Assembly: GCA_947646735.1 (NCBI GenBank)
Contig: CANTFK010000765.1
Location: forward strand, 1-64,000
Reading direction: 5' to 3'
Length of the DNA: 64,000 bases
Source: Peronospora farinosa
Taxonomy: Eukaryota > Oomycota > Peronosporomycetes > Peronosporales > Peronosporaceae
Position 1 is the stretch's first letter, and each line of letters starts with the position of its first letter. Below, piece after piece: positions 9,147 to 57,832 of this stretch. The translations under genes were made by a program, and so were the position numbers. The notes below the pieces were generated by a model. That model was not told the origin of the DNA, ran no database searches, and saw only the letters and a list, made by a program, of their open reading frames with translations.

Positions 9147-9398
9147 TGGTGCGCGTGCCCGGATCTTCGGAAGACGCGGGATTTCACCGCGAGTCCCAAG
9201 ATGATAAAGATGTTCATGTCAAGAAGGAGCACAAGACCGAAGAGTCACGGGAAGACCGATCGCCAGTGACTCAAGAAGAAACAAACAAAGGATCGAAGGA
9301 CCGACCGGGCCTTGGGAGGGGCCCGGTCAACATGGTCGAGGTTGAATTCATTGAAGAAAAACCTAAATATCCTCCCTATGTCCTCGTTGAGGACACCT
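9147..9398 (+). pseudogene. Primer-binding site and gag 5' stub after LTR C
   Basis: An open frame begins at an ATG overlapping the putative primer-binding site. It encodes a very charged, Lys/Glu/Asp-rich stretch to about 9398, where it meets the truncated 3' end of the minus-strand element at 9398-14,044. The open frame alone does not prove a gag, but its position after LTR and primer site supports it. Only the first 80 or so residues remain. Confidence 0.4.
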
Positions 9399-11066
9399 TG
9401 GGTCTTTAAACTCCTCACTGCCAAGAGCATGTAGCAACGCTATACAGTGATCATCTCTAGCATACGCCGTACGAATGAGATCTGTGATAGAAGACGACAA
9501 CGTCGTCACATGAGCAAGCTCATAATCAGGTCTGCGTGACAACGCATTAGCCAAAGCATTTTGCTTGCCCGGCTTATATTTCACCTCAAAATTATATTCG
9601 GCAAAGAATGACAGCCATCTGGCCATTCTCTGCGAGAGATGCGGCGACTGAGTCGCAGTGCGTAACGATGCATGATCGGTATAAATCACAAAAGGCTTTG
9701 AGCCCAGCAGATGAACTCTGAATTTGACCAGGGCATACTTCATCGCAAGTAGCTCTTTGTCATGAACTGGATAGTTCTTTTCTGCAGCTTTCAGCTGGCG
9801 AGATTCAAAATCGATTACACGCTCACGGCCTTTATCATCTGATTGTAACAGAGCACTGCCAATGGCAAAGTCCGATGCGTCACAGACGACGCTAAACGGT
9901 CGGTCAGGGTCTGGAAAGGCCAAAATAGGAGCATGTAGAAGGCTCGCCTTCACCGCTTGAAAAGCATCTTCGTGTTCGGCATGCCAACACCATTCCACAT
10001 CCTTTTTAAGGAGATTGGATAACGGCCGAGCCATATCAGCGTAATTCTCGCTATACTTGTGTAAGTAATTGGCAAGGCCAAGCCATTTACGCAAGTCCTT
10101 TTGAGACTGTGGAACAGGCCAATCTACTATGGCTTTGACTTTGGCGGGATCCGCTCGTAGGCCCCGCTTCCCAATGAAGCACCCTAATAAGGGAATCTCT
10201 TCGGCCCCGAAGATGCACTTAGATGCATTAGCATAGAATTTATTAGTGCGCATGCACTCGAGCACTGCTCGTAAATGAACAATATGGTTCTCAATATCTG
10301 ACCGCCCATGTTCAGCTCGGCTATGGACAAAAATGTCATCAAAGTACGTCTGTTCATAACTTCGATGGGGTCGAAACAATTGCGTCACCAACCGGTTAAA
10401 CGTAGCCGGAGCATTAGATAGCCCCTGGGGCATCACTAACCACTCCCAGAGCATACCGCTCGGAGTACTAACAACAGTAAGCGGAATATCGCTAGCTCGC
10501 ATGAGCAATTGGTAATAACCATCGACTAAGTCGAGAGCACTGTACATGGTACAACCGACCATATTGTTCTGAAGAACATCCTTTCTAGGTATCGGTGTCT
10601 GTGCAGGTATAGTGGCCGCATTGAGCTTATTATAAGCATGAACAATACGCCACTTACCCTTCGGCTTCTTAACACAGAAAGTGGGTGTCGAGTGCAGGGA
10701 TTTACTCTCACGCACCATGCCCGCCGCGTGCTTTGCACGAAAGAACTCGTCAATGAAGTCACACTGTTCTTTGGGTAAAGGCCACTGCCGTGTTACACAG
10801 TATTTGGTTCCGGGAACCAAGTCAATTTCATGACGTACGCCCCTATCAGGTGGTAGAACCGACGGTGGATCATGACACACCACGTCCTGGAATTTCTTTA
10901 CCAAAGGATAGTAGGGATCTGAAGGGTTTTTCAGAATAGATGCCCCACTACGTGCACTTAGTGCTGCTTTGGTATCTTCAAGGACTGTCTCATCGACAAG
11001 CGAGGATGAGTTTAACTCGAGGTTAGGTCGAATGACTACCATATCGGATAGAGCACCTGCCTTCAA
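9363..11066 (-). pseudogene. Gypsy reverse transcriptase-RNase H (truncated pol)
   Basis: The 567-residue open stretch holds a Ty3/Gypsy reverse transcriptase. Visible motifs are [12 protein letters not shown], the palm motif YFDD followed by IFVHS, the thumb region with [14 protein letters not shown], and an RNase H beginning [13 protein letters not shown] with a later YTDHASL. The catalytic YxDD motif is intact. The last dozen residues read into unrelated sequence, so the true end is about 9398 and the integrase is missing. Upstream, a TAG at 11070-11072 separates it from the linker in the same frame. Confidence 0.85.
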
Positions 11067-11069
11067 GGC

Positions 11070-11837
11070 CTAATGAAATTCATCCACAGACATTTCGTCT
11101 AGCTCTAAAAGAGCATTTAATGATGGGAGGTCCTCAAGGTCAACCTCACCATCTACATCACCTGTCACTCCGTTGACCAGGGTGTACAACTGGTCATTGA
11201 CATTACTATGCGATAAAACAGACGCTTTGCGTCTCGCAGCCGCCATCTGGCAACGCTGCCGTCTCATTGACGAGACCGTACTCTTCAAAGTACTTGGGAT
11301 ATTATCATCCCCAAGGTCAACAGACCCCTTGTCGTTTACTTGCCCTATGCGAGGGCCGATGTCATTACCGACACCCAGTGGGTCACTAGTACCAGTGACT
11401 TCACTAACAAGGTCATCGACCTTCACTTGCTCTATACGAGAGCCGATGTCATTATCGACATCCAGTGAATCGCATTTACAGCCAATATCACTAACAAGGT
11501 CATCGACCTTCACTTGCTCTATACGAGAGCCGATGTCATTACTGACATCCAGTAAATCGCATTTACAGCCAATATTACTAACAAGGTCATCGACCTTAAC
11601 TTGCTCTATACGAGAGCCGATGTCATTACCGACATCCAGTGTCTCAATATTACTTTGAGTATCACCGGTACGTGCCGTTCCACTAAGTGTCATTGAGCTC
11701 TGCTCGACACTATTATTGTTAACATCGGAGTTTATCAACTCAGACACTCCAATGTCCAGCACACTAACTGAATCAGTTAATGGCTCGCGCCAATAGCACT
11801 TTTGTTTTCTAGCGAAGGTGGGTTCATGACTCTCCAA
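11070..11837 (-). pseudogene. Protease-RT linker with 29-aa tandem repeats
   Basis: An acidic open stretch between protease and RT of the same element, in the same frame as both. It carries four tandem copies of a 29-residue unit built on [17 protein letters not shown] (87-bp DNA repeat, roughly 11,330-11,650). The fourth copy is diverged. No known domain is recognised. It is probably a flexible spacer of the polyprotein that has expanded by slippage or unequal exchange. Confidence 0.6.
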
Positions 11838-11882
11838 AGCTTCGCTAGGAACATTGCGCGTTGCGCCTAAAGTTTTGGATCT

Positions 11883-12238
11883 TCAATAGATCCACGGCTT
11901 ATGGCGTTCCAGCCAGGCCATACCGAGAATGAGATCATATCTCGAGTCCAAATCTAGGACAAGACAGCGTTCAACGCTATTGAAGTCTAAGAACTTCACA
12001 CCTAAGTTCAACGGAACTTTAGGAACGGTGACACGTACACCGGTCGCGAGACACCGTCTTACGGTTATACTGTCACCCTCTTGCGCTTCTAGCGCCTCAG
12101 CATACAGCTGACTCCCTTCAAGGGAGCGACGTCGTACATAATTCCCTGACGCCCCTGAGTCAATTAAAATTGACCATGGTTTCTCAAACCTTAACGGTTG
12201 CCGACACAACCAACAAGCCTGGCTTGTAATTTTGTTCT
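11883..12238 (-). pseudogene. Gypsy retropepsin-like aspartic protease
   Basis: The retropepsin active-site motif ILIDSGAS is present near the start, followed downstream by the second conserved ILGMAWL (ILG-type) motif. Size and order between gag and RT fit the protease of a Ty3/Gypsy polyprotein. A TGA at 11883-11885 ends the open stretch just after the ILGMAWLERH region. The following codons continue in frame to the linker, so this stop looks like a point mutation rather than a natural end. A frameshift lies just upstream at about 12220. Confidence 0.7.
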
Positions 12239-12338
12239 ATGGGAGCATCCACAGAACCACCTGGGGATAAGCCCTGTTTACCTTTACCTCCTAAAGATCC
12301 AACAGAACTTAGTTCTTTCCCAGTAGGGCGCCCCGCGC

Positions 12339-13346
12339 CTACTGGGAGTTGACGTTTTCCCCTGCGGTGCTCGCCTTTTGGCTAGGAGCAGGGTTTCGGC
12401 TTTGCCGATTTGAACGTTGCTTTCGCAACGGACAGCTAGGGCGGAGATGCCTAGTGCTTCCGCACATGTAACATCTACGGATGCTACCTTGCTGCTCAGC
12501 AGCTTGAAGCTCAGCTTCTTCAGCATGGCTGAGATCCATGGGTTCCGCCCTATTAGAGGTATTTGATTGATACCAGGGCAGACCATATCGAGCAGATTTA
12601 AAATTAAATTCAGCGTTAAACGCTACGCTTACTGCCTCCTCAAAAGTTGAAGGCTGGACACGGAAAACTTCCGTCCTGGCGACCCCAGTGCGAAGTCCTT
12701 CCATAAAAATGGTTACTCGGACTTCCTCTGCCAGTGGGTCCTGCTGCATAGCAGCAATGAGAGTTCTCAACTCTTGGACATAGTCCGACAATTCTTTCTT
12801 ACCCTGTCGGGTAGCTAGGAAGCGTGAGCGCACACGATAAGCCTGATTAGGCGGTGCAAACACACAAGTTAATTGCTTTTTAAGCATTTCCCATGTGGGA
12901 AATGCAGCATTTACAGAGACATCGCTCGTTAGAGCCCACTCTCTAGCTCTTCCACCGAGCTTAGAAATGGCCAAGCCAACTCGTTGCTTATCGGATACAA
13001 GCATGGCGGCATCCATTGCCATTTCAACTTCTCGGATCCAGAGGAGAAGGTTCTCTCCCTCCTTCCCCTCGAAGGTCTTTACATTTAAAACAAGTGGACG
13101 AGCCTTTGGCTCTGCATCGGGCACAGGTACCGGAATGTACTGTGTAGGCGCAGCTGACGCTGCCTGGTCATGGACCTGCCCAAGTAGCGTTGCCTCATAA
13201 TGCATAAAGGCCTCAAGGCGAGCATTAAGGACCTCCAGGCCTTGGGCCAAAAGGGCCTCGATTTGATCAGGCCCGACGAACGCAGATAGTTTATCTAAGG
13301 CGAGTCGTTGCGCCTCAGAGAGGTGATTTTGATTCTCCATTCTCAC
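12339..13346 (-). CDS. Gypsy gag polyprotein with one zinc knuckle
   Basis: A 335-residue gag. Its retrotransposon-gag core spans roughly residues 100-235 ([13 protein letters not shown] through a TFEEAVSVA stretch). A CCHC zinc knuckle, [14 protein letters not shown], lies near residues 290-305 and is followed by a basic Gln/Arg-rich tail. It starts at an ATG about 45 nt downstream of the putative primer-binding site at 13391-13398. It belongs to the element with 5' LTR 13401-14044 and should package element RNA. It ends at TAG 12339-12341, after which protease coding resumes in another frame, so the end is probably a mutation. Confidence 0.8.
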
Positions 13347-14989: not shown

Positions 14990-17900
14990 ATGTACAAAGG
15001 AATGTCCACACCTCAGAGTGACAAAATGATGACATTGCGTCCTCGAATGTCCGACGTGGAGGTCAAAATGATATCTCATGGAAGTCGTCGATCTTCCATG
15101 TTTATCGATGGACAGGGCATATCACGAGAAGACGATCAGGAAGAGACTCAACGCATCCCCATGATCCCACTTATGGGTCAAGGATCAGCTAAACCAAGCT
15201 TTGTCTCAGGTCTCAGTATGGGTTCACACATGTCTTTTAATCAAGTGCGTGGTACATCTAACGCGGAACAATTGCGTAGACGTCTTCCTACTACCCTGTC
15301 TAGCAAGAAAAAGTCTTTCTACAGTGTCCACACCAATGTCGCCTTGCGAGGTGAGATGCCTCGTGTGCCTCGTCATTGGCTCAATGCACGCTTTCGACAC
15401 AACACTTTCTTTGCTCGACGTTTGTTACACTCAGGACTACCCTTAGCTTGCGTCCTGGCTGCTGGATTGGGGTTCTACTATTTTTACAAACCTCACTGGA
15501 TCATGCTAAACTCCACGTCTGCACCGGATCACTACGGTTTTCTACTCCACTCACCCAGATTAGTCTACACTTTTCGAGCTTCGAGCTGTGAAAACGTCGT
15601 GGGGTTCTCGGCATTAATTTACCACACTCTTCCGGCGGTGCTTTTGCTGTGTTTGCCAGGTTCGGGTTGGCGTTTGTTTGAACCTTTCAAGCGAGATGAA
15701 CCTACAGCCACAGTCCTTGATGCTTCAGGAACGCAAACGGACAAGACGGATATTGAATGGGGAAATGGAGGAATGGACCTGGATGAAGTCAAAGGTGATG
15801 ATATCAACCTTACCAAGATTAAGCGGCGGCTGGTGTTTCAGTTCTGCGAGTTGGTTGCGGTGCTGTTGCTACTTTTTCAAGCAGTCGTGTTGATGTTTTT
15901 CCTCTACATGTTCTTTAAAGGCGGTGTCTTTACATGCAATGTGCACGCAGTGCAGTTATTTGGACTTGTCAGTATTGTGTGCTTTGTATGGATTTTCACG
16001 GAACTCCAGTACTTTGCACGCTTTCGTGAACACATTAAAATGCTTCTGGGAGCATTTCAAGAAAGTGACCAGACAGGTGACGTTCGCAATCATGTCATGG
16101 ATCCGGGTGTTGATCAGCTTATGAACCAGTCTGACAAAGCTTTAGCGGTTGTGCGAAAACGACTGTACAAGGCAACTCGTCAGGGTGATCTGCGTGAAAT
16201 GCAAGACATCTTGGACTACGCGGAAGCGGCAGGTTTGACCAGCGATAAGCAAGGATTTCCACGCAAGAGCTATGCTGCAGCTTCTCTTTTCTTTGGTTTC
16301 TTCGCGCAGTCTCGAAAGAACCCGGTGCATGTAGCAGCTTACCATGGTAATATTCGCGCTTTGGAGCTGCTGGAGGCTCGGGGGTTTGACGTCACAGCAA
16401 TGGATAAGTTTAACCGTGTACGGTTCTCAACTGGAGACCTCTTCTGGTACTTTGCTCGTTTCTTCGTGGCGCGCCCTGGAGTAGACGGAGGAGGCTGTGA
16501 TGAAGAATCGGCTGCATCGATATTTCGGACAACACTAGTAACTCCGCTGCATTGTGCCGTGTCCACAGGTCAGTTAGAGACCGTACGATGGCTACTTTCG
16601 CGTGGAGTGTCACCTCGTACTCTAGCACAATCTTCGTACCGTTCGGATCGGGTACCACCGCTTTTCTTGGCAGAGCACCCTGATATTGTCCACGAACTGC
16701 TTGTACATGGTGCTGACCTTTTGGCTGTTCCAGATCCAGGATATATGAACACGTTGACGGCGTTGCAACTCGCTTACCTGCGAGGCAATTATGCCGTAGC
16801 ACAAGAACTGGAAGAATGGGGTGGCGATGTGGCGCTCACTCCGTTTCACTCGGCTGCTGGTCGGAACGATGTAATGGCTGTGCGGAAGTTCTTGCGAAAA
16901 AAGACGGATGTAGATTGTCTAGGTGAAATGGGCTATATAGGGCTCAATCGACGAACTCCGTTGCACTGGGCAGCCATAAGTGGTGCGCTGGAGGTGGTGG
17001 ATCTGCTTCTAGAAGCTGGTGCTGACCCGAATTTTCAGGATGCTCGTGGACGTTCACCGCTGCATTGGGCGGCACGACTTAACAAAACCGATGTGGTGCG
17101 CTCACTACTTGAAGGTGGTGCTGACCCTAAAATGGTAGACATTGACTTCATGACTCCGTTAATGTGTGCTGCGAGTCGTCTTGATGCGACGCGTGAGCTG
17201 TTTGGCATTCTTACGTCTGCAGGTGCCAATATTAATTATCAGCAGCCCACCACAGGTGACACAGCACTACATATTGCTGTGCGAGAGGATAACGAGCACT
17301 CGGCGCTCGCGATTTTGGCCAACGGTGGCAACCTTATGAAGATGAACATTGAGGGTTTACGGCCGTTAGACTGTACTACGTCAACGCGATTGCTATTTGA
17401 AATCAAGCGAGCTGCCGGACAGCGAGATGTGATGATTAGCTACACGCACTCGCACGCTGAATTTGCTAAGAAAATTCGCAAAGCTCTTGAAGACGCAAAT
17501 GTGACGACATGGCTGGACTTGATGGATCCAAGTGGCATCGGCGGTGGGTCTGTCTGGCGTGAGGAGATTGCACGGGGAATTACGAATGCTGCTGTGGTGC
17601 TATGTCTTCTTACTGAGGATTACGCGCAGTCAGAATGGTGCTTGAAAGAATTGGCATTGGCGAAGCAAGTTGGCACTCCAATTTTGGCAGTGTCAAGTGA
17701 AGGTGTGAGCATTGGCGAGGATTTACAGGTGTATTTGTACACTCGGCAGCTGATTCCGTTCGAACCTGCCATCACCCAAACCAGACGTAATAGCACGAAT
17801 GTACGGCAGATTGAGTATGACTACGACGAAGCTAAGTTCAAGACGCAGTTTCGGTTGCTGCTTGATGGAGTGCGTGATGAAATTGAAAAGAATCGCGACG

Positions 17901-18736
17901 CTGTTCAGCAGAAAAATATTGCGAGCAATCGTCGCGACAATGGACTCGAGCAGATTTCAAGTGGAACCATGTTAGCGACCTCGGGGGGTGGTTTTTCTCG
18001 ACTCTTTGAGCGATGGGATCCCGAAGCGAGTGGCGCACAGAAGCAATTTGTCTTTATCTCGCATGGAGACAAGCACGCAGGTTTTGTGCAGCAGCTGTAC
18101 TGTGAACTTACAGACGCTGGTGTCACGTGCTATGGTGACCGTAACGTGGAAGGTCAAGGCTTTGAGGACCGTATCCACGCTACTCGAGAAGCCATTCTAC
18201 AATGTACTTGCTTCCTGGTCATTTTATCAAAGCAGACAATGGACAGCGAGTTGGTACGGGATCAATTGGCGTTTGCAGAGGACAAGGGGCGATCTATTTT
18301 TCCTATTGCATTGAATGATCTAGATCCTGGTCTCGACAAGCGCTACTCACTTGCTCGTAATGAGATATTCCACTTTATGGGCAACGGAATGAGCTTTAAA
18401 CCCAGTGCTGATCGTCTGATTCAACGATTACGTCGTCACTATGTGCCTCGTGACGAGACTCTCGGGACGATCTTGAACAAGAGTACGCGAATTGCCAGTG
18501 CCAATACTTCCTTCGTCTCGTTTGGCTTTCGGGCGACAGATTTTGATGGGGAAACTACGGATGAGACGCTTATCAAGGAAGGAGCTGTACTACGTGAAAG
18601 TGACACTTTTTCTAGATTTAGCAGACATGATGCAAGCATAGAGATCGAGTCTAGCGCTGTCACGCGTAATTTCGAGTCGATTTCAGGCATTGATGATGTC
18701 CAATTGGACCTTTCTAGCACGCATGTTCGAATGTAA
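14990..18736 (+). CDS. Membrane protein with ankyrin repeats and two TIR domains (paralogue 1)
   Basis: A single-exon 1248-aa protein. A basic, Ser-rich N-terminus is followed by four predicted membrane segments (about residues 148-166, 203-223, 282-309, 321-340). Roughly nine ankyrin repeats follow (about 405-805; TPLHCAV, TPLHWAA, SPLHWAA, TALHIAV). TIR 1 spans about 812-930 and a second TIR-like domain about 1018-1150, then a Ser/Thr-rich tail. TIR 1 begins VMISYTHSH and has SEWCLKEL, with E887 in the place of the catalytic Glu of NADase TIRs such as SARM1. TIR 2 begins FVFISHGDKH but reads SELVRDQLAFA at the same place, so the Glu is replaced by Gln. A 1576-aa paralogue lies at 52371-47641. 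A membrane-bound signalling or NAD-consuming role is inference; the domain calls are strong. Confidence 0.9.
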   Translation: MYKGMSTPQSDKMMTLRPRMSDVEVKMISHGSRRSSMFIDGQGISREDDQEETQRIPMIPLMGQGSAKPSFVSGLSMGSHMSFNQVRGTSNAEQLRRRLPTTLSSKKKSFYSVHTNVALRGEMPRVPRHWLNARFRHNTFFARRLLHSGLPLACVLAAGLGFYYFYKPHWIMLNSTSAPDHYGFLLHSPRLVYTFRASSCENVVGFSALIYHTLPAVLLLCLPGSGWRLFEPFKRDEPTATVLDASGTQTDKTDIEWGNGGMDLDEVKGDDINLTKIKRRLVFQFCELVAVLLLLFQAVVLMFFLYMFFKGGVFTCNVHAVQLFGLVSIVCFVWIFTELQYFARFREHIKMLLGAFQESDQTGDVRNHVMDPGVDQLMNQSDKALAVVRKRLYKATRQGDLREMQDILDYAEAAGLTSDKQGFPRKSYAAASLFFGFFAQSRKNPVHVAAYHGNIRALELLEARGFDVTAMDKFNRVRFSTGDLFWYFARFFVARPGVDGGGCDEESAASIFRTTLVTPLHCAVSTGQLETVRWLLSRGVSPRTLAQSSYRSDRVPPLFLAEHPDIVHELLVHGADLLAVPDPGYMNTLTALQLAYLRGNYAVAQELEEWGGDVALTPFHSAAGRNDVMAVRKFLRKKTDVDCLGEMGYIGLNRRTPLHWAAISGALEVVDLLLEAGADPNFQDARGRSPLHWAARLNKTDVVRSLLEGGADPKMVDIDFMTPLMCAASRLDATRELFGILTSAGANINYQQPTTGDTALHIAVREDNEHSALAILANGGNLMKMNIEGLRPLDCTTSTRLLFEIKRAAGQRDVMISYTHSHAEFAKKIRKALEDANVTTWLDLMDPSGIGGGSVWREEIARGITNAAVVLCLLTEDYAQSEWCLKELALAKQVGTPILAVSSEGVSIGEDLQVYLYTRQLIPFEPAITQTRRNSTNVRQIEYDYDEAKFKTQFRLLLDGVRDEIEKNRDAVQQKNIASNRRDNGLEQISSGTMLATSGGGFSRLFERWDPEASGAQKQFVFISHGDKHAGFVQQLYCELTDAGVTCYGDRNVEGQGFEDRIHATREAILQCTCFLVILSKQTMDSELVRDQLAFAEDKGRSIFPIALNDLDPGLDKRYSLARNEIFHFMGNGMSFKPSADRLIQRLRRHYVPRDETLGTILNKSTRIASANTSFVSFGFRATDFDGETTDETLIKEGAVLRESDTFSRFSRHDASIEIESSAVTRNFESISGIDDVQLDLSSTHVRM

Positions 18737-35229: not shown

Positions 35230-36267
35230 TCACCAGCTTTCCGTTGGCATGGCGGATGAACTGATGTAGCTGTTGCCACCTACAAGTGACGAAATGGGTG
35301 GCAGCACACCTCTTGGCTCTGGTCGTAATGGAGGCAAGTGAATGGTCGGTGCCAAACCATTATTGCTAACATCGGGCGGACAGAAGTTCGTAGTAGGATA
35401 AAGTTCTCGATGAGATTGCTTCAGCGTTGACGGAAAACAGAGGTCTTGATACTGAGGTGTGTAGCTCAATTCGATGGGTGGAAGCCACGTTGGCGATGTC
35501 TGCAAAGGCAGAGCCCCTGATGAAGCACCATAGCATGGAGACTCCAATAATAACGGACCCCTGGGCGATGCCACGCGGGTCATCAAAGTAGGTGCTATCT
35601 CGTGCGCATTGACTGCGCCCTGCAACAGCGACACATTGGTCGGTCTCTTAGCGTTCGGCTCGCGTTGGTCCTCCTCTGTCGCGAGAAGCGGGTTATTCGT
35701 CGTCGGGTATTCCAACAACGCTGCGAGTTTGTTTTTCTGCTTCACCAACTGCTCCGCATACGACTCGAGTCGAGCACCATCGAAGTAGCCGATAGCATGT
35801 TCCATAGAAGCAATACTTTTACGCAAGCCCGTGATCTGGCGGTGTGGCCAGCGGGCGATGCCATGCCGTCGACAGATCTTTTTCAGCAAAGTCACACAAA
35901 TGCCAAATCTTGCAGCGACCTTGGCCAGTGGCTCTTCAAAATGCGGACGCAACATGTCTAGCGTGATGCTACTTGACGCCGTCATGTTGGGACGCGGCAA
36001 ACTTGACTTGAACCATGATGTTGACATCGGCGACCCAGGCTCCAACAGTTTACGACGCTTGATCGGTGAACGAGTGGTGGTGCTGGAGAGATGGCGTTTG
36101 TGTCCCATTGGCGGCAAGAGCATTGGTGCGGCGGTTGAGTTACAAGTTGAGACGACGGTCTCTCTTAAACGATCAAAGCCATCCATAGTCAGTAGATCAA
36201 TTGCTGTTGAGTAAGTCAAACAAGAGGTGACTGAGCAACGCCACACCGGCTGCGTCAGATTGGGCAT
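35230..36267 (-). CDS. RWP-RK domain transcription factor (copy 1)
   Basis: A 345-aa protein. The RWP-RK DNA-binding domain spans about residues 101-150. It includes GICVTLLKKICRRHGI followed by RWPHRQ, where the last residue of the RWPxRK signature is Gln. A helical segment (about 150-190) and a long Pro/Ser-rich C-terminus follow. A basic patch, KRRK (70-73), could be a nuclear signal. RWP-RK proteins bind DNA and are common in plants, algae and oomycetes. A related gene lies 1.5 kb away on the same strand. Met28 is an alternative start. The convergent membrane-protein gene ends about 460 bp away. Confidence 0.85.
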   Translation of the reverse strand: MPNLTQPVWRCSVTSCLTYSTAIDLLTMDGFDRLRETVVSTCNSTAAPMLLPPMGHKRHLSSTTTRSPIKRRKLLEPGSPMSTSWFKSSLPRPNMTASSSITLDMLRPHFEEPLAKVAARFGICVTLLKKICRRHGIARWPHRQITGLRKSIASMEHAIGYFDGARLESYAEQLVKQKNKLAALLEYPTTNNPLLATEEDQREPNAKRPTNVSLLQGAVNAHEIAPTLMTRVASPRGPLLLESPCYGASSGALPLQTSPTWLPPIELSYTPQYQDLCFPSTLKQSHRELYPTTNFCPPDVSNNGLAPTIHLPPLRPEPRGVLPPISSLVGGNSYISSSAMPTESW

Positions 36268-37802: not shown

Positions 37803-38846
37803 TCATGCAGGGACTACCTGCGCTTCTTTTTCCTCGTCTTCGTTGCTTGTTTCGATTGTCTTCTTCACGAGCTGCTCTGCAACAGCCGCCTCTGCGTCTA
37901 ATTTCTGGAAGAGCTCTTCCGTGGGCTCGCTTCCTGTGCGTGGATATGCCTGTAGCTTGTACTCGAGTTGTAACAATTGAGCTGCGTAAGCGCGTCTTTG
38001 GTCTCCATCGAGGTAGTTCACTTGCTTGGTCATGGATGCAATGCTCTTGCGGAGTCCGCAGATCTTCCGATACGGCCAGTTGTTGATACCATTCCGTCGA
38101 CATATCTTTTTCAGTAGAGTCGTGCACACACAGAAGCTATCGGCTGCTTCATGCAATGGCCTCTCAAAATGTAGTTCCAACATGTCGAAGGTTATGTTTT
38201 GCGCGGCGTTCGAGATCGGACAATTAGGTGGCGTCACTGCCAATCCGACAGAGCCCCTTGGTCGTTGAATTTCTGCTACTTTTGACATTCGGTGTCGTCC
38301 ACCAGCCATAGATGTAGACCATCTCGTCGTCGTTTTAGTCCGTCGAGCTGACACCCGCACAGTGACAGCCTGTGTGTAGTGCTCGCTTTCTTGTCGCAAT
38401 TTCTCTCGAGATGTTTCTGCTTCTACAGCACAATTGGAAAACACAGCAGACCCCTCTGGGTCTCCTCGGCCTTGTAAAGTGGCTGGTTGCATTGTTGTAG
38501 ACTTTGCCTCACGGTCGATCATATCATCTAAAGCACAATGCTTATCGATGTGTCGTCGAGTATCGGGACTGAAGCGAGGTGAACTTGTTTCCGGAGAGTT
38601 TGCTCCAGCGGGTGGCCGCGTGATCGTAGCATGGATGTGTCCAATGATTACTATCGAAAGCGGCCCACATGAGGCGTGGTGGTGCACAGACGGATCCAAT
38701 ACAGCGCAATGTAAGCTAGCTTGAGTAGATGATCTACGGTCGAAGTCTGTCGAAGTGTGGGTTCCAAAATTGTTCATGACCGAATTGCTAGGTCTTTGAC
38801 CACACCGTTCAGGATTATCTTCTTTCGATGCGTCTAGGGACTTCAT
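37803..38846 (-). CDS. RWP-RK domain transcription factor (copy 2)
   Basis: A 347-aa protein. The RWP-RK domain sits at about residues 218-268, with CVCTTLLKKICRRNGI followed by NWPYRK, where the first Arg of the signature is Asn. After it come a helical Gln/Leu-rich region and an acidic C-terminus (DEEKEA). The N-terminal 200 residues are His/Ser/Arg-rich, unlike copy 1, so similarity is confined to the DNA-binding domain and the helix after it (GLRKSIASM in both). Same strand as copy 1, so they are probably old tandem duplicates with divergent DNA contact residues. Confidence 0.85.
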   Translation of the reverse strand: MKSLDASKEDNPERCGQRPSNSVMNNFGTHTSTDFDRRSSTQASLHCAVLDPSVHHHASCGPLSIVIIGHIHATITRPPAGANSPETSSPRFSPDTRRHIDKHCALDDMIDREAKSTTMQPATLQGRGDPEGSAVFSNCAVEAETSREKLRQESEHYTQAVTVRVSARRTKTTTRWSTSMAGGRHRMSKVAEIQRPRGSVGLAVTPPNCPISNAAQNITFDMLELHFERPLHEAADSFCVCTTLLKKICRRNGINNWPYRKICGLRKSIASMTKQVNYLDGDQRRAYAAQLLQLEYKLQAYPRTGSEPTEELFQKLDAEAAVAEQLVKKTIETSNEDEEKEAQVVPA

Positions 38847-47640: not shown

Positions 47641-50600
47641 TTATCGCTTTGGCTTTTTGTCGCCCAGCATTGCATCAACGCTGATGGTGGTGCCGTCGAT
47701 TGATTCAGTGAGTTCCAGTATGCTAATGGACGCGGTGGATCCTCGTTGGCGCTTATCGAAACTGCCGTCACTTGAAAGAGCACCCAATGCAGGGTGCCGT
47801 TGCATTGTTCTTGTCACAGAAGGAACTTCCTCTTGCACTGCATGCACCTCTCCATTTTCCTCCACTTCTAACTCCTGGTCCGAATCAAAGTCGTCATCCT
47901 GAATTCCAGTGTAACACAAGCTTTCGTCCTCTTCCTCAAGATCATCCGTGATTCGACTCACGAGTGTCGTGAAGTTTCCAATCATGGATTGGGACAGACT
48001 TATACCCGATGTCAAACTGCGTGTCGTACCAGTTGATTCAGCAAATGTCTGTGAGAGTCGCGTAGAAGGCAAGCCGAAGTTGGACGTGTCACTCCGTGAA
48101 CTCGCGAAAAAATGACTGTGTGAGTTTGGACGACGTCTGCGAATGCTAGCATCGTTACTATGGCTCTGCAAGGGCGAATTGTAGGATCCACCAGTCGACA
48201 AGAAGCTGTCGCACAGATCCGAAAACCCTCCTCGAAGTTGCGCATCGTTTCCATTAGCGTGCCCGTCACTGCCAACGCCCGAAAGTTGACCACTCGAAAT
48301 AAAACTAGAAAACTGTCCACCAGCGTTAGAGCTCGACACTTGACCGGCAGAGTTGAAACTGGTAATTGGACCCTGAATACTTATGCCATATACCTCTTCT
48401 CGCAGCGCGTCTAGCAAGTGTCGTAGCGATTGACGAAAGCCCATCATGTCGCCTTTCGTAAAAAAGTGGAAAAAATCGCTGCGTGAAAGGCTGTACTTGA
48501 TATCGAGGGCGAAGTCCATGCGGTTCACTACCACAGGCAATATTATCTTTCCTTTGTCCTCTGCGAACGCAAGCTGATCCTTTACTAGTTCGCTTGCCAA
48601 CGTCTTCTCAGACATGAGAACAACAAAGGCCGAGCACTTGAGAATGGCTTCCTTTGCTTCAAATATGCGCATCGACATATCCTCGTTTCTTGACAACATC
48701 AAACGCTTTGGTTGGGACTTTTCTACTTCCTCTTCCTTGTCCTCCGCAATAATTGGCGACAATTTTGCCATGTGCTTGCGGTCTACATAGCACCTAAGAC
48801 CCCCCTCCCGGCACATTTCAACGCACAGCTTGCGCACAAATCGCTGGTGGTAGTCTCCATGACTGATGAACACAAATTGTTCGCCGCTGGCTGTAGCAGT
48901 TTTGAGCTCTTGCAGATCTTCCACAATACTGTCGTTGGGGTTTGGTTCATCGATATCATTTGAGTCTCGTTCAGAGATGACATTCTTGCGTCCCCTGCGT
49001 GTGGGCTTGTCTTTGCTGGCTGCTTGGTGAAAGTAATATCCACCGGTGTCGAGAATAATGCTGTCCGAGACGCCGCAGTCGTCAGCAAAGCTGCTTGAGC
49101 TGCTGGAGCTGCTAGTACCGCTTAAGACGCTCAGATTTGTGCCGTTGTAGTCGTAGTTATTGTTAAACCGCATGCCCCGTTGGTTGGCCGGAAACACACC
49201 GTTGGAACCAATGGACCGAGACGATCCCTGCGGACCACGGCGACGGCTGCCGATTGCCATGGGCATCGTCGAATCATCACCAACGTCGTGAATCACTGAA
49301 CCGCCCGAGTCACTGGCGTAGTAATTGGGTGTATCAAATGCAGACAATGCCAGTGCACGCTCATCAAACTTCATAGAATCCATACCGTACGCGCTAGTAG
49401 AGCTCATACCAGAGGTCATGTGATTAAGGCGGCGGCCACGCACACCGCCACTTCCATGGTTTAATCCTGCCATTGGATTCGTCTCCGCACGACGAATGTT
49501 GCGCTTGATATTGTCCTCCTTCCGCTTCTCAATCTCGTCACGCATACCATCCAGCAACATACGCAATTGATTCTTGTATGCTTCTTCATCGTATTCGTAT
49601 CGGGTTTTCTTCTCATTTACCTTCTCGACACTCACAATAGCACTTTCAAACGGCACGAGCTGTCGCGTGTACAGATACACCTGAAGCTCCTCAGAAATCT
49701 TTGCATGTTCTGTGGAGATGGCCATAATGGGCGTGCCTACTTGTTTGGCTAATGCCAATTCCTTCAAACACCACTCAGACTGCGCATAGTCCTCCGTTAG
49801 GATACAAAGTACAACCGCAGCATTGTTAATACCACGTGCAATTTCCTCTCGCCAGACTGATCCACCACCTATTCCACTAGGATCCATGAGATCAAGCCAC
49901 ACGGTAATGTTTGCATCCTCCAGTGACTTGCGGAGCTTCAGAGCGAACTCCATGTGCGAGTGTGTGTAACTAATCATCACATCACGAGTACCTGCTGCCC
50001 GCTTGATCTCGAACTGCAGTCTCGTGGACGTGGTACAATCGATAGGTCGGAATCCGTCGTAGTTCGTGCGCATGATGTCACCTCCCATACTCAACAATGC
50101 CAACGCTGTCTGTTGATCGTCCAGTTTAACAGCCAAGTGCAATGCCGTATCACCTGTCGAACGAAGCTGTCGGTTGATATCACCGCCACTAGCAACTAAT
50201 GCCTTGAACATATCCGCAGTTGTCCCACCAGCACAAGCTGCACAAATGATGGGCGTCATGTCACCATTATCTACAATTGTCGGGTCGGCACCTTGTGCCA
50301 AAAGCACGCGCACAATATCCACACGATTCACTCGAGCAGCCCAGTGTAGCGCTGTTCGTCCATGTGCATCCTGGAAATTGGCATTGGCCTTAGCAGCGAG
50401 CAGAATCTCGACAGCTCCTACTGCACCGTTCACTGCCGCCCAATGTAGCGGTGTACGCTTGTTGAGTCCGACGTAGCCCAATTCACCCAACACGTCTGGA
50501 TTTACCTTCTTACGCAAAAAACTTCGGATCGTTGCAACATCATCCATAGCAGCGGCAGCGTGCAGCGGTGTCAGTGCCACATCACCACCCCAGTCCTCCA

Positions 50601-52371
50601 ATACTTGCGCAACGGCATAGTTACCTCGCAAATAGGCGAGTTGTAAGACTGTAATAGTGTTCATGTGACCAGGATCAGGGATCGCGAGATGATTCGCGCC
50701 AGCTCGTAGTAGTACGTGCACAATTTCGGGGTGATCAGCCAAGAATATAGGTGGTAATCGGCCTTCACAGCGGTAGGATGACTTGGAACAAAGGTTGACG
50801 TCCGCTCCGTGAGCAACAAGCCAGCGTACAGCGGCCAGACGACCTGTACTCACAGCACAATGCAGCGGTGTAACCAGCGTCGTTTTAAACACGGAGCTGT
50901 AAGCCTCATCAGCTGAGACTACAGGTTTCGGGATGAAATAGCTCGCGAGATACCAGAACAGGTCGCCAGTACTGAACCTCACACGTGAGACTTTGTCAAA
51001 AGAATTGACCTTAAAATGTGCCTTGTACAGCAGGTCCATGGCTGCGATATTTCCTTGGTATGCAGCAACATGCATGGGATTCTTCTTGGCAAGTCCAAAG
51101 ATGCCAAACACCATGGCCGGGTCTGGGTACAGTTCTCGCGCAAAGCTCTCACCCAGATGTAGCTTTGCGATACGAATAGAGCGACGAATAAGTCGGAGAT
51201 CACCAAGTTGAGCTCCTCGAAAAAGTCTCTTTCGAACGTCTTTAACAACTGCAGATTTGGCCGGAGTCGGAAACGTTGTCTCGGCTCCATTGCCGTTCTT
51301 TTGTTGCTGACGATTTTTGTGCTTCATCTTGGAACGCAACATGTGCGCCTTCACGTCACCTGTCTGATCGCTCTCTTTGAACGCACCCAACTGCATCTTT
51401 AAATGTTCCCTGAATCTCGCAAAGGCGCGCATGAGGGCAAAGAGCAGCCAGAACATGATAATAGCACACCCGCAAAAGACATACGCCGCGATATTCGAGT
51501 CACAGTATACAAAAATTTTCCCGCTCGCAACGTAGTAGACGAGAAAGCCGAGAACCAGCGCCTCATACAGGAAGATTCCAACGCCCACGAGTTCACAAAT
51601 CTGTAGACAAATTGTCCGCTTGACTTTCTGTAGTCTCCCACCTCGATCAATCCGCTGTTCTCTTCGAAAAGGTTCAAAAACTCGAAAACCTGAAGCTGGC
51701 AGTCCCAATATAAACACTGCTGGGAACAAATGATACACCAACGCTGCCAACGCCAACGACGTGGAGCAACTATGCTCGTCACTATACACCAAGACCTTAA
51801 GTGGCGACCCGACATATAATTTACCATGTTGAATATCATCTGCCTCTGCTTTATAAAAGTAAAAAAAGCCAAGCGCGACGAGATCTCCAAGCACAATAAT
51901 CTGCGAAAGTCTCAGCAGCTTTCTTGAAAAGTACGAATTGCTCTGGAATTGACCATTGAGGTATCTCATGGGCAATTTCGGCACTTCGGAGCCACTTTTG
52001 TCAATTGCACTCATGTGCAATGTATGTTCCGTGACGCCAGCTTTACTGTCCTGCTCCGACTCCTTTAGAATTTGTTCTTTTTGTGCTCCTAGTTCATGAT
52101 CCTCAGCATCTTCAAGTGTCCTGGTCCTTGATTTTTCAACTTCCATTGGATCGAAAGTAGTAGCAGCTCTATTATTTTGACGATCATGTTGTTGAAAGTT
52201 TTGATGTTGTGATGCCCCCGATTCAGCAGTATCACTATTAAAAGTGTCTTGTCTTGTCACGATCTTGGTCAGAGCATCCACGGGTGTCTTGAATTTTGTA
52301 TATTGCGTCTGTATTGTACGTCTTTCGTGACAATTGGCTTCCTCTTGGTCTTGATCCGTCGTCTTGTTCAT
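47641..52371 (-). CDS. Membrane protein with ankyrin repeats and two TIR domains (paralogue 2)
   Basis: A single-exon 1576-aa protein, collinear with the protein at 14990-18736. It has an acidic Gln/Glu/Asp-rich N-terminus, four membrane segments (about 157-174, 203-224, 256-284, 295-317), ankyrin repeats (about 400-790), TIR 1 (about 797-915) and TIR 2 (about 1165-1305). A 270-aa Ser/Asp/Glu-rich C-terminal extension has no counterpart in paralogue 1. TIR 1 has SEWCLKEL with E871 in the catalytic position. TIR 2 reads SELVKDQLAFA (Gln in that position) and carries an insertion of about 25 residues. The linker between the TIRs is longer (about 250 residues) and low-complexity. The strongest conservation is in the ankyrin block and TIR 1. 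Function is not known; it lies inside the segment bounded by the two MON1 copies. Confidence 0.9.
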   Translation of the reverse strand: MNKTTDQDQEEANCHERRTIQTQYTKFKTPVDALTKIVTRQDTFNSDTAESGASQHQNFQQHDRQNNRAATTFDPMEVEKSRTRTLEDAEDHELGAQKEQILKESEQDSKAGVTEHTLHMSAIDKSGSEVPKLPMRYLNGQFQSNSYFSRKLLRLSQIIVLGDLVALGFFYFYKAEADDIQHGKLYVGSPLKVLVYSDEHSCSTSLALAALVYHLFPAVFILGLPASGFRVFEPFRREQRIDRGGRLQKVKRTICLQICELVGVGIFLYEALVLGFLVYYVASGKIFVYCDSNIAAYVFCGCAIIMFWLLFALMRAFARFREHLKMQLGAFKESDQTGDVKAHMLRSKMKHKNRQQQKNGNGAETTFPTPAKSAVVKDVRKRLFRGAQLGDLRLIRRSIRIAKLHLGESFARELYPDPAMVFGIFGLAKKNPMHVAAYQGNIAAMDLLYKAHFKVNSFDKVSRVRFSTGDLFWYLASYFIPKPVVSADEAYSSVFKTTLVTPLHCAVSTGRLAAVRWLVAHGADVNLCSKSSYRCEGRLPPIFLADHPEIVHVLLRAGANHLAIPDPGHMNTITVLQLAYLRGNYAVAQVLEDWGGDVALTPLHAAAAMDDVATIRSFLRKKVNPDVLGELGYVGLNKRTPLHWAAVNGAVGAVEILLAAKANANFQDAHGRTALHWAARVNRVDIVRVLLAQGADPTIVDNGDMTPIICAACAGGTTADMFKALVASGGDINRQLRSTGDTALHLAVKLDDQQTALALLSMGGDIMRTNYDGFRPIDCTTSTRLQFEIKRAAGTRDVMISYTHSHMEFALKLRKSLEDANITVWLDLMDPSGIGGGSVWREEIARGINNAAVVLCILTEDYAQSEWCLKELALAKQVGTPIMAISTEHAKISEELQVYLYTRQLVPFESAIVSVEKVNEKKTRYEYDEEAYKNQLRMLLDGMRDEIEKRKEDNIKRNIRRAETNPMAGLNHGSGGVRGRRLNHMTSGMSSTSAYGMDSMKFDERALALSAFDTPNYYASDSGGSVIHDVGDDSTMPMAIGSRRRGPQGSSRSIGSNGVFPANQRGMRFNNNYDYNGTNLSVLSGTSSSSSSSSFADDCGVSDSIILDTGGYYFHQAASKDKPTRRGRKNVISERDSNDIDEPNPNDSIVEDLQELKTATASGEQFVFISHGDYHQRFVRKLCVEMCREGGLRCYVDRKHMAKLSPIIAEDKEEEVEKSQPKRLMLSRNEDMSMRIFEAKEAILKCSAFVVLMSEKTLASELVKDQLAFAEDKGKIILPVVVNRMDFALDIKYSLSRSDFFHFFTKGDMMGFRQSLRHLLDALREEVYGISIQGPITSFNSAGQVSSSNAGGQFSSFISSGQLSGVGSDGHANGNDAQLRGGFSDLCDSFLSTGGSYNSPLQSHSNDASIRRRRPNSHSHFFASSRSDTSNFGLPSTRLSQTFAESTGTTRSLTSGISLSQSMIGNFTTLVSRITDDLEEEDESLCYTGIQDDDFDSDQELEVEENGEVHAVQEEVPSVTRTMQRHPALGALSSDGSFDKRQRGSTASISILELTESIDGTTISVDAMLGDKKPKR

Positions 52372-55531: not shown

Positions 55532-57832
55532 TCAAGCTAAATAGTTGTACATCCGTCGGTCCGTCGTGCTGCGCTGAAGGTATTCACGCTCAATGAGGCT
55601 TTCGATGCGCAGCTTGATAAGCTGCGGAGACGGCGTAAAACGACCTGACATCTGTCGAGTGACTTCGGCAATAAGCTGGTTGTGCTGCATCTGCTTGCGT
55701 GTCTTCATGATACGCACGATTGCTGCTTCAACGAGATGCTTACGATCCTCAGCAACTGTAGGTGGTAGCGCATCGGCTGGATTGCTTGAGCTTAATGCCA
55801 CAGCAGGCAACAACGACGTCTCCTTTTGTGATACCAGCGGTATCCGTACGCGATGGAGTTTCGACTTGTAGCCGTTGTTCAGTGTAAACACGTCGGTTTC
55901 CTCATCGATCCGCTTTCCCTTTGAGCTCTTGATCAAAATCTTGTACTTCGGTGTACAGAGAGAAATCAAATGCCGCTTGAGATCCTTCACATCAATACGC
56001 GTGCGCTCAACTAAGTCCTTGAAACGCCACTCCAAGCGCTGATTGAACAACATCAAAATGACCGCTTGGTACGTAGACACGTTCAGCTCGTGACGACGCT
56101 TCGTGTCCTCTACTCCCGCCGAAAATGAAGCGCGAACATCAACAGTTCCCATATTTACCATCCATGCCAATTTACGACCATTGTGTCGTGCATAGTAGAA
56201 AGATTCAAATGTCTGTGTAAGCTGGACAAGCTCCGACGGTAAAGCACACATAGGAGCCATCTCCGTGGGCCAAAAACCGCTAGTGAGTACGTGCATCGAT
56301 AACGGCATCGGTGTGACAGATGACATGTCAGTACCAAAACTGTTCCCTCTGGCGTCGTAGCCTGATTTCCGGTATAGTTCCATGAGGTCTTTCGAAATAC
56401 TCATATCCTTGAACATGCCCTCCAGTTTGGACGTAAACTGGTAGCCACACTCGGCCTTGAGCTTGGAGATCACGAGCTTCTCTGCCTCGTCCGAAGTACC
56501 ACGACTATTAAGGAGACGCTTGGCGAGCAAGACCTTGTAAAACTCTTCGAAAACATCCTTATCCTGTAGATACCGGAACAATGCAATCACTTGAGTTACA
56601 CGACCATCCATCTCTTCTTCAAACCTGCTTTTAGAACGCAGCAATTCATCTAGATAGTGTGCGAGATATCCAGCACACACTGTGTTAGTGTTCATAAACG
56701 CTTCGAATCCCTGTTTAATGGATTTGTGGAATTGTGGGTCGTCAAAAAAACAAACCAACAAGAAACCCACAAACTTTTCGCGTAATCTCAAAAGCTTTTC
56801 CACAAATTGCGATGCGTCCAATGCTGTCTCTAAATTCGACTGTGTCTTCACTACCTCCTCGCCAGTAGTTTTAATATACTGCAAGACACAGTCACTGATC
56901 TCAGCTAGTGTGCTTGGTACTCGTCGAAAGAGTGAGTACATCCTGCGCAGCGCCTGTGTCTTTCCATCACGGAACAATGCAACACATCCAGAGTGTTCCA
57001 TCTCTACTAAAGCTTTCGCCTGGTTCTTAATCAACTGCGTCTCGACAATTGTCTTCAACTTGTGTTCAGTTGACGGATTCAAGTAATGCAACACCCGTGC
57101 GCCTTCTTCATTTAGACGTTGCTCTGCTTTCTCCAAATATTCGGAACACGTTGCAATATCCAGCATCGTCTGTGCTTCTGCTCGATAAAAGTCCAATGTC
57201 GTATCAAGAAATAACTTTTCAAACTCCTTCTCGTAAACTGCATTCGAGTGTACACCAAGATCAATGAGCATACGTAGTATACTTTTAATAAGGTCTCGAT
57301 CAATAAGTTCTCCCTGTCGTTCTGTCTCAATACTCAGCAATAACCTCGTACGTAGACGATCACGTATACTATCACAACGTACAACAACATCTCGAAAAAT
57401 ATGAAGACCCTTGTCATATACTGGCAGTTTTCGCTTCTGTGTAACGTACGTACGGTCCATATACATGAGGATATCGCGTACCATCGTCATGACAATTTGA
57501 TAATCCATCCATTGCTCATTAAGTGTTCCAAGTAATAATTCATCTGATACTGAAGCTATTTGGTGTGCGACACACTCCAGATGTTCCGTAATGACGTCAA
57601 CAACACCATTGTATAACACATCACCATGTTTATGTAACACGAGATTATAGGAGTTACGATAAAGCTCTTCAAATGATAATAAACTCGCATTATGAGAAAA
57701 GATTTCGTATATGGCTGTACGTAATAAGATCCAGATTTCTTGAGCACGGGTTGGATCCATGCCCATGTTTTGACGATAGGGTTTAATTACGAGCTTCTTC
57801 ATATTGAATACAGTATGGGGATTTTTATTCAT
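55532..57832 (-). CDS. CUL3: Cullin-3
   Basis: Single exon, 766 aa from the ATG at 57832. The frame is also open upstream but lacks an ATG. Met at 57802 (MKKLVIKPY) is an alternative start that fits the animal N-terminus better. The cullin repeat start FEELYRNSYNLVLHKHG is diagnostic of CUL3. The cullin homology region has LLAKRLLNSRGTSDEAEKLV. The winged-helix end has the neddylation site IVRIMK (about Lys710) and the terminal REYLQR...YNYLA. It scaffolds BTB-adaptor/RBX1 ubiquitin ligases in cytosol and nucleus. The length matches the family. A TSS-like motif lies only a few bases before the first ATG, which favours the later start. Confidence 0.95.
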   Translation of the reverse strand: MNKNPHTVFNMKKLVIKPYRQNMGMDPTRAQEIWILLRTAIYEIFSHNASLLSFEELYRNSYNLVLHKHGDVLYNGVVDVITEHLECVAHQIASVSDELLLGTLNEQWMDYQIVMTMVRDILMYMDRTYVTQKRKLPVYDKGLHIFRDVVVRCDSIRDRLRTRLLLSIETERQGELIDRDLIKSILRMLIDLGVHSNAVYEKEFEKLFLDTTLDFYRAEAQTMLDIATCSEYLEKAEQRLNEEGARVLHYLNPSTEHKLKTIVETQLIKNQAKALVEMEHSGCVALFRDGKTQALRRMYSLFRRVPSTLAEISDCVLQYIKTTGEEVVKTQSNLETALDASQFVEKLLRLREKFVGFLLVCFFDDPQFHKSIKQGFEAFMNTNTVCAGYLAHYLDELLRSKSRFEEEMDGRVTQVIALFRYLQDKDVFEEFYKVLLAKRLLNSRGTSDEAEKLVISKLKAECGYQFTSKLEGMFKDMSISKDLMELYRKSGYDARGNSFGTDMSSVTPMPLSMHVLTSGFWPTEMAPMCALPSELVQLTQTFESFYYARHNGRKLAWMVNMGTVDVRASFSAGVEDTKRRHELNVSTYQAVILMLFNQRLEWRFKDLVERTRIDVKDLKRHLISLCTPKYKILIKSSKGKRIDEETDVFTLNNGYKSKLHRVRIPLVSQKETSLLPAVALSSSNPADALPPTVAEDRKHLVEAAIVRIMKTRKQMQHNQLIAEVTRQMSGRFTPSPQLIKLRIESLIEREYLQRSTTDRRMYNYLA

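What the first reader, a model, noticed from the sequence alone, without database searches (positions are those of the whole stretch)
14990..18736. Oomycete TM-ankyrin-TIR-TIR architecture, paralogue 1
One open frame joins four membrane helices, about nine ankyrin repeats and two consecutive TIR domains. I know of no described family with this order: animal and plant TIRs sit with LRR, NB-ARC, SAM or death domains, and SARM1 has ARM-SAM-TIR. TIR 1 keeps WCLKEL with Glu887, as in NAD-cleaving TIRs. Seen directly: domain order and motifs. Inference: a membrane-tethered sensor whose ankyrin block gates a TIR NADase, possibly in cell death or stress signalling of a pathogen.
Basis: partly seen in the sequence, partly recalled or inferred. 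Interest (0 to 1): 0.88.

Follow-up and report, generated by a model that had tools for sequence, protein, structure and literature searches.

The report
Oomycete membrane-ankyrin protein with paired TIRs
Water moulds carry an old, barely described family of membrane proteins that end in two TIR domains, one with the residue thought to cleave NAD+ and one with it consistently replaced, which makes the family a testable candidate for an unknown signalling enzyme in these organisms.

Summary
Window 14990-18736 (+) is one 1248-aa open frame, from Peronospora effusa by protein match, with four membrane helices, about ten ankyrin repeats and two TIR domains. Relatives with this order occur from Albugo and Saprolegniales to Phytophthora, and the eight TIR_2 matches found in the 46.9-Mb assembly lie in five loci of this family. 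At the putative catalytic position TIR1 reads Glu in 187 of 202 proteins (4 Gln, 10 gaps, 1 no match), but TIR2 reads Gln in 176 of 202 (18 no match, 5 gaps, 2 Ser, 1 Thr). Best reading: a membrane protein with cytosolic ends whose ankyrin block and non-catalytic TIR2 regulate a TIR1 that cleaves NAD+. No activity is shown. PMC9153377 already mentions uncharacterized oomycete ankyrin repeat-TIR proteins in one sentence; nine searches of one library showed me no description of the membrane domain or of the catalytic/pseudo pair. The database names TRP channel and RxLR effector candidate are not supported.

The parts
14990..18736 (+). TM4-ankyrin-TIR1-TIR2 gene, single open frame, 1248 aa plus stop
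   Evidence: P. effusa record P0001 of the same length, rounded 100% over aa 140-1130
14990..15373 (+). N-terminal tail (aa 1-128); no hydrophobic leader in the first 50 aa and no RxLR pattern in the first 145 aa
15422..15478 (+). membrane helix 1 (aa 145-163; model helix 140-165)
15587..15589 (+). Cys200, presumed outer loop 1; Cys here and at Cys316 in 128 of 159 sequences
15596..15652 (+). membrane helix 2 (aa 203-221; model helices 199-225)
15851..15907 (+). membrane helix 3 (aa 288-306; model helix 281-310)
15935..15937 (+). Cys316, presumed outer loop 2
15941..15997 (+). membrane helix 4 (aa 318-336; model helix 319-352)
16322..17416 (+). ankyrin block, about ten helix pairs (aa 445-809), with an insert between the first and second pair
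17423..17779 (+). TIR1 (aa 812-930), catalytic-type
17648..17650 (+). Glu887 codon, putative catalytic Glu of TIR1
17828..17950 (+). 41-residue helix between the TIRs (aa 947-987)
18041..18343 (+). TIR2 (aa 1018-1118), lacks the Glu
18263..18265 (+). Gln1092 codon, aligned with the TIR1 Glu
47641..52371 (-). paralogue of the same family, 1576 aa

Best explanation
An oomycete membrane receptor-enzyme. Four membrane helices hold the protein with both ends in the cytosol; the ankyrin block binds a partner or a neighbouring subunit; TIR1 is an NAD+-cleaving (glycohydrolase or ADP-ribosyl cyclase type) enzyme switched on when TIR domains assemble; TIR2 is a TIR that has lost the catalytic Glu but kept other conserved residues on what should be the pocket side, and acts as a non-catalytic partner that positions, restrains or senses ligand for TIR1. 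Shown here: domain order, fold by profile and model, conservation, the Glu/Gln split, the charge pattern. Inferred: NAD+ cleavage, topology, assembly, gating and the role of TIR2.
For: TIR_2 over cut-off in both TIRs. The TIR1 profile matches solved TIRs: Cat1 7.7e-9, 7xoz (deposited as ADP-ribosyl cyclase) 3.8e-4, RPS4 and RPP1; in the two alignments printed, Cat1 and 7xoz, the TIR1 Glu lies on a Glu. Of 202 proteins the TIR1 position reads Glu in 187, gap in 10, no match in 1, Gln in 4; in all four the TIR1 profile rests on a stretch that the TIR2 profile also claims, so no TIR1 Glu was read there. TIR2: Gln in 176 of 202, 18 no match, 5 gaps, 2 Ser, 1 Thr. TIR2 is homologous to TIR1 (hhalign probability 97.5) and keeps HGDxH and DQLAFAED at 90% or more of the ungapped residues in a 159-sequence set. 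K+R per residue is 0.195, 0.188 and 0.127 on the presumed inner side against 0.09 and 0.074 outside.
Against: No activity, localisation or expression data. In the 30-member C100 clade no readable member has Trp at the WxxxE position, although Glu stays in 29 (1 gap), so some members may be inactive. In the 7-member C87 clade TIR2 has no readable residue in 4, Ser in 2 and Gln in 1. A few models have no readable TIR1; whether that is loss or a poor gene model is unknown. The stretch after helix 4 has as many acidic as basic residues (3.84 against 3.78). The site geometry was not measured, full-model pTM is 0.55 and pLDDT falls to 54-67 at about aa 840-859 of TIR1. Glu conservation could be structural.
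Confidence: 0.58

Rival explanations
1. Both TIRs are non-enzymatic assembly modules, as in MyD88 or Toll-like receptor tails; the protein signals by recruiting other proteins.
For: TIR2 lacks the Glu, and its profile also matches MyD88 chains weakly, E 0.027-0.04. TIR1 of the C100 clade has lost the Trp.
Against: Conservation of the TIR1 Glu (187 of 202) would not be needed for a pure scaffold. The eight TIR_2 and two TIR matches in the assembly all lie in this family, so no separate TIR adaptor was seen.
Confidence: 0.22
2. A TRP-type calcium channel, as several database names say.
For: Names 'transient receptor potential Ca2 channel' in the listings; ankyrin repeats and membrane helices together. 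PMC4820453 does report TRPML and PKD-type TRP members in oomycetes (passages).
Against: Four, not six, membrane segments; no ion-transport Pfam family among the nine hits; the ankyrins follow the membrane part; no significant Foldseek PDB match for the membrane model, best E 4.2. PMC4820453 reports TRPA, TRPC, TRPM and TRPN undetectable in oomycete genomes (passages).
Confidence: 0.06
3. A secreted effector that acts inside the plant, as one Hyaloperonospora record name suggests.
For: Record name only (P0009).
Against: No hydrophobic N-terminal leader in this protein or P0009 (highest 12-residue mean in about the first 50 aa 0.05 and -0.21) and no RxLR pattern in their first 145 and 160 residues; four internal membrane helices; relatives in Saprolegnia, Achlya and Pythium oligandrum.
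Confidence: 0.03
4. Assembly or gene-model fusion of unrelated genes.
For: Some relatives do look fused to other genes (P0069, P0133).
Against: The same order recurs in many species and at several loci of this assembly.
Confidence: 0.01

Closest known systems
Uncharacterized oomycete ankyrin repeat-TIR proteins (PMC9153377, section 6 read)
   Same: Oomycete, ankyrin repeats plus TIR.
   Different: The section gives no accession, membrane domain, second TIR or catalytic analysis, so identity with this family is likely but not proven.
SARM1 (ARM-SAM-TIR NADase; recalled)
   Same: Repeat domain N-terminal to a TIR with a catalytic-type Glu.
   Different: No ARM or SAM hit; four membrane helices; a second TIR without the Glu.
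Plant TIR NADases (RPS4, RPP1, 7xoz)
   Same: Profile match of TIR1 and the WCLxEL motif, seen in the 7xoz alignment.
   Different: No NB-ARC or LRR hit; membrane-bound; tandem TIR.
Cat1, CRISPR-associated TIR
   Same: Best solved-structure sequence match to both TIR profiles.
   Different: CRISPR-associated; the match covers the TIR only.
Toll-like receptors / MyD88
   Same: TIR domains presumed cytosolic, and TIR2 without the catalytic Glu.
   Different: Four helices, small outer loops, no LRR hit, and a TIR1 that looks enzymatic.

Membership tests
TIR domain superfamily | Profile match over the curated cut-off | tested here: met
   TIR_2 73.8 bits (TIR1) and 49.4 bits (TIR2), cut-off 28
TIR domain superfamily | Alternating beta/alpha fold | tested here: met
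   DSSP of the model from aa 814 and from aa 1020; block pLDDT 78-89 in TIR2, 54-87 in TIR1. No structural search was run on the TIRs alone
TIR NADase | Glu in the alpha-C helix | tested here: met
   TIR1 only: Glu887 on a Glu of Cat1 and 7xoz, family counts. In TIR2 it is Gln
TIR NADase | NAD+ cleavage | not testable with these tools
   Needs an enzyme assay
SARM1 | ARM and SAM domains | tested here: not met
   Not among the nine Pfam hits at E<=0.01
Toll-like receptor | LRR ectodomain and single membrane helix | tested here: not met
   No LRR hit, four hydrophobic segments
Plant TNL | NB-ARC and LRR | tested here: not met
   Not among the nine Pfam hits
TRP channel | Six membrane helices with an ion-transport domain | tested here: not met
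   Four segments, no such Pfam hit
TRP channel | Channel fold of the membrane part | tested here: inconclusive
RxLR effector | Signal peptide and RxLR motif | tested here: not met
   Hydropathy and pattern only; no signal-peptide predictor was run
CD38-type ADP-ribosyl cyclase | Pfam Rib_hydrolayse domain | tested here: not met
   Not among the nine Pfam hits of the protein
Oomycete ankyrin-TIR proteins of PMC9153377 | Same proteins | tested here: inconclusive
   No accession in the section read

The most novel reading that the evidence does not exclude
The family supplies a nucleotide second messenger that oomycetes seemed to lack. PMC4820453, section 5, asks how receptors raise Ca2+ without phospholipase C in oomycetes such as P. 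infestans, raises ADP-ribosyl cyclases as one alternative and reports no CD38 homologue. A membrane-bound TIR1 making cyclic ADP-ribose-type products, tuned by a pocket-keeping but dead TIR2, would fill that role, possibly upstream of the RyR-domain (PKDRR) channels, since RyR domains are found in this assembly too.
Probability: 0.13. Interest if true: 0.87.

Novelty: new variant of a known kind. Interest (0 to 1): 0.6.

Why it matters
If TIR1 is active, oomycetes have a receptor-like, membrane-bound TIR enzyme family unlike SARM1, Toll-like receptors or plant TNLs, and it holds the eight TIR_2 matches found in this assembly. The conserved active/dead TIR pair is a natural system for asking what a catalytically dead TIR does beside an active one. 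It also offers a concrete candidate for the open question of how oomycetes without phospholipase C mobilise Ca2+, and it corrects misleading database names.

Tried and rejected
TRP channel, secreted effector and gene fusion were considered and set aside for the reasons given under rivals.

Genome searches for CD38-type cyclase (PF02267), LSDAT_euk (PF18139) and PI-PLC-X (PF00388) gave no hit, but no control genome rang either, so they do not show absence. RyR domains rang at four places in two open frames.

Whether the architecture exists outside oomycetes could not be settled: the protein searches listed 120 of 708, 120 of 1045 and 120 of 1272 hits, and divergent unnamed proteins (P0161, P0162, P0163, P0209) carry no taxon. 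Literature: nine searches (listings, 20 of 24 papers shown and 12 of 16) showed no paper on membrane-ankyrin-TIR-TIR proteins; one sentence in PMC9153377 is the only mention I saw. Papers looked into: PMC9153377 (passages and section 6), PMC4820453 (passages and section 5), PMC7399828, PMC8195603, PMC9806590 and PMC2939053 (passages only). The library lacks most subscription papers and preprints.

Full report
What is there. Window 14990-18736 (+) holds one open frame of 1248 codons under the standard code. A Peronospora effusa record of the same length (P0001) matches at a rounded 100% over residues 140-1130, though not letter for letter over the whole frame, so the window comes from P. effusa or something very close. 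Pfam finds ankyrin repeats (Ank_2, 205.5 bits) and TIR_2 in two stretches (114.3 bits together), all over cut-off.

Anatomy. Hydrophobic segments lie at aa 145-163, 203-221, 288-306 and 318-336. Of 124 aligned sequences, 107 have at least 1000 residues; of these 82 show four such segments in the region, 20 three, 4 two and 1 none. An AlphaFold model from 77 sequences (mean pLDDT 77.4, pTM 0.55) gives four long helices, about ten ankyrin helix pairs (picked by eye), a TIR-type unit, a 41-residue helix and a second TIR-type unit. The membrane part alone models better (pLDDT 81.6, pTM 0.74) but has no significant Foldseek match in the PDB. Positive charge is denser before helix 1, between helices 2 and 3 and after helix 4 (0.195, 0.188, 0.127 K+R per residue) than in the other two loops (0.09, 0.074), which fits both ends in the cytosol, although the last stretch is balanced by acidic residues. 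Cys200 and Cys316, both in presumed outer loops, are both Cys in 128 of 159 sequences; a disulfide between them is a guess.

The two TIRs differ. A profile of TIR1 matches Cat1 (7.7e-9) and, among others, 7xoz (deposited as ADP-ribosyl cyclase), RPS4 and RPP1; in the printed alignments with Cat1 and 7xoz the TIR1 Glu falls on a Glu. The TIR2 profile matches the same kinds of chain more weakly, and MyD88 weaker still, and TIR2 is homologous to TIR1 (probability 97.5). Among 202 proteins (ten ankyrin-only rows left out of 212, near-duplicates kept) the TIR1 position reads Glu in 187, Gln in 4, gap in 10 and no match in 1. In the four Gln cases (P0019, P0051, P0063, P0135) the TIR1 profile rests on a stretch that the TIR2 profile also claims, so these models show no readable TIR1 Glu; one of the ten gap cases (P0046) has the Glu in a second matched piece. 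The TIR2 position reads Gln in 176, Ser in 2, Thr in 1, gap in 5 and no match in 18. In a 159-sequence set thinned at 97% identity (own copies kept), H1025, G1026, D1027, H1029, F1032, D1050, R1061 and the run D1091-D1098 of TIR2 are conserved at 90% or more of ungapped residues. In known TIRs the first loop and the alpha-C helix line the nucleotide site (recalled), so TIR2 looks like a dead enzyme that kept its pocket. Against a simple story, no readable member of the 30-member C100 clade has Trp at the WxxxE position of TIR1 (Glu in 29, 1 gap), and in the 7-member C87 clade the TIR2 residue is unreadable in 4, Ser in 2 and Gln in 1.

Family and distribution. TIR_2 rings at eight places in the 46.9-Mb assembly, in five loci of this family: two in this window and one each on C201, C100 and C87; the TIR family PF01582 rings at two places, both in the window. 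Such searches give lower bounds. A tree of 159 sequences puts the five in five clades with support 1.0 of 50, 23, 28, 30 and 7 sequences, with P0205 standing for C87 (405 of 407 residues identical to the middle open frame); 21 sequences lie outside these clades. The names that I read on TIR-bearing rows of the three listings are Peronospora, Phytophthora, Hyaloperonospora, Plasmopara, Bremia, Peronosclerospora, Nothophytophthora, Globisporangium, Pythium, Albugo, Achlya, Saprolegnia, Thraustotheca and Aphanomyces, all oomycetes to my knowledge (Thraustotheca checked). Locus tags and contig lengths in the listings suggest that the two window paralogues have stayed near each other in P. oligandrum, P. 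insidiosum, Bremia and Plasmopara (not examined further).

How it may work. NAD-cleaving TIRs act when TIRs assemble (recalled from work on SARM1, plants and bacteria). The simplest reading is a membrane-held, ankyrin-regulated TIR1 enzyme in the oomycete's own cytosol, with TIR2 as partner, brake or ligand sensor. Cleavage, gating and TIR2's role are inference. No evidence here concerns virulence or cell death. The names TRP channel and RxLR effector candidate are not supported.

Wider question. PMC4820453, section 5 (read), reports no PLC family members in P. infestans or other non-saprolegnid oomycetes (a PLC delta homologue is present in S. diclina), asks how receptors then raise Ca2+, offers channel activation by G-protein beta-gamma subunits or ADP-ribosyl cyclases as possibilities, and reports no CD38 homologue in P. 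infestans or S. diclina. This assembly gave no hit for PF02267 or PF00388, though no control genome rang, and four RyR-domain hits in two frames. A TIR cyclase would fit that gap; nothing here tests it.

Prior art. [quoted passage not shown] PMC9806590 (passages) has no occurrence of ankyrin or Phytophthora. The nine searches listed under Tried and rejected showed nothing further.

Verdict. Observation confirmed, interpretation partly supported; the strongest new point is the conserved catalytic/pseudo TIR pair on a membrane-ankyrin chassis.

Noticed in passing
window 9363-13340 (-): Ty3-type retroelement pieces (reverse transcriptase/RNase H and gag/capsid frames) lie just upstream of the gene.
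   Followed up: no
window 35230-36267 and 37803-38846 (-): Two RWP-RK domain genes lie between the two paralogues; a cullin (55532-57832, -) lies beyond the second.
   Followed up: no
window 18736-47641: A third, about 1600-aa paralogue class (P0183, P0185, P0196, P0197; WCMKEL in TIR1) shares contigs with the other two in P. oligandrum and Plasmopara by the listings, but its matches in this window fall on the two known paralogues and no copy of its own was seen in the assembly.
   Followed up: partly
L021 (G000 C201:140145-140609): A match to the ankyrin part of the family in a frame with one stop; perhaps a remnant.
   Followed up: no
L011 444-4228: The C87 member is spread over three open frames; a P. 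effusa record (P0205, 1195 aa) matches its middle frame at 405 of 407 residues, so introns are likely.
   Followed up: partly
P0133, P0134, P0069: Relatives whose models continue into Fumble and Uma2 domains or a transposase-like part, probably fused gene models (P0134 from its listing only).
   Followed up: no
P0051: A Phytophthora cactorum model with two TIR2-type stretches and no readable TIR1.
   Followed up: no
window 47641-52371 (-): By eye, the stretch between TIR1 and TIR2 in the second window paralogue is much longer and rich in Ser, Gly and Asn.
   Followed up: no
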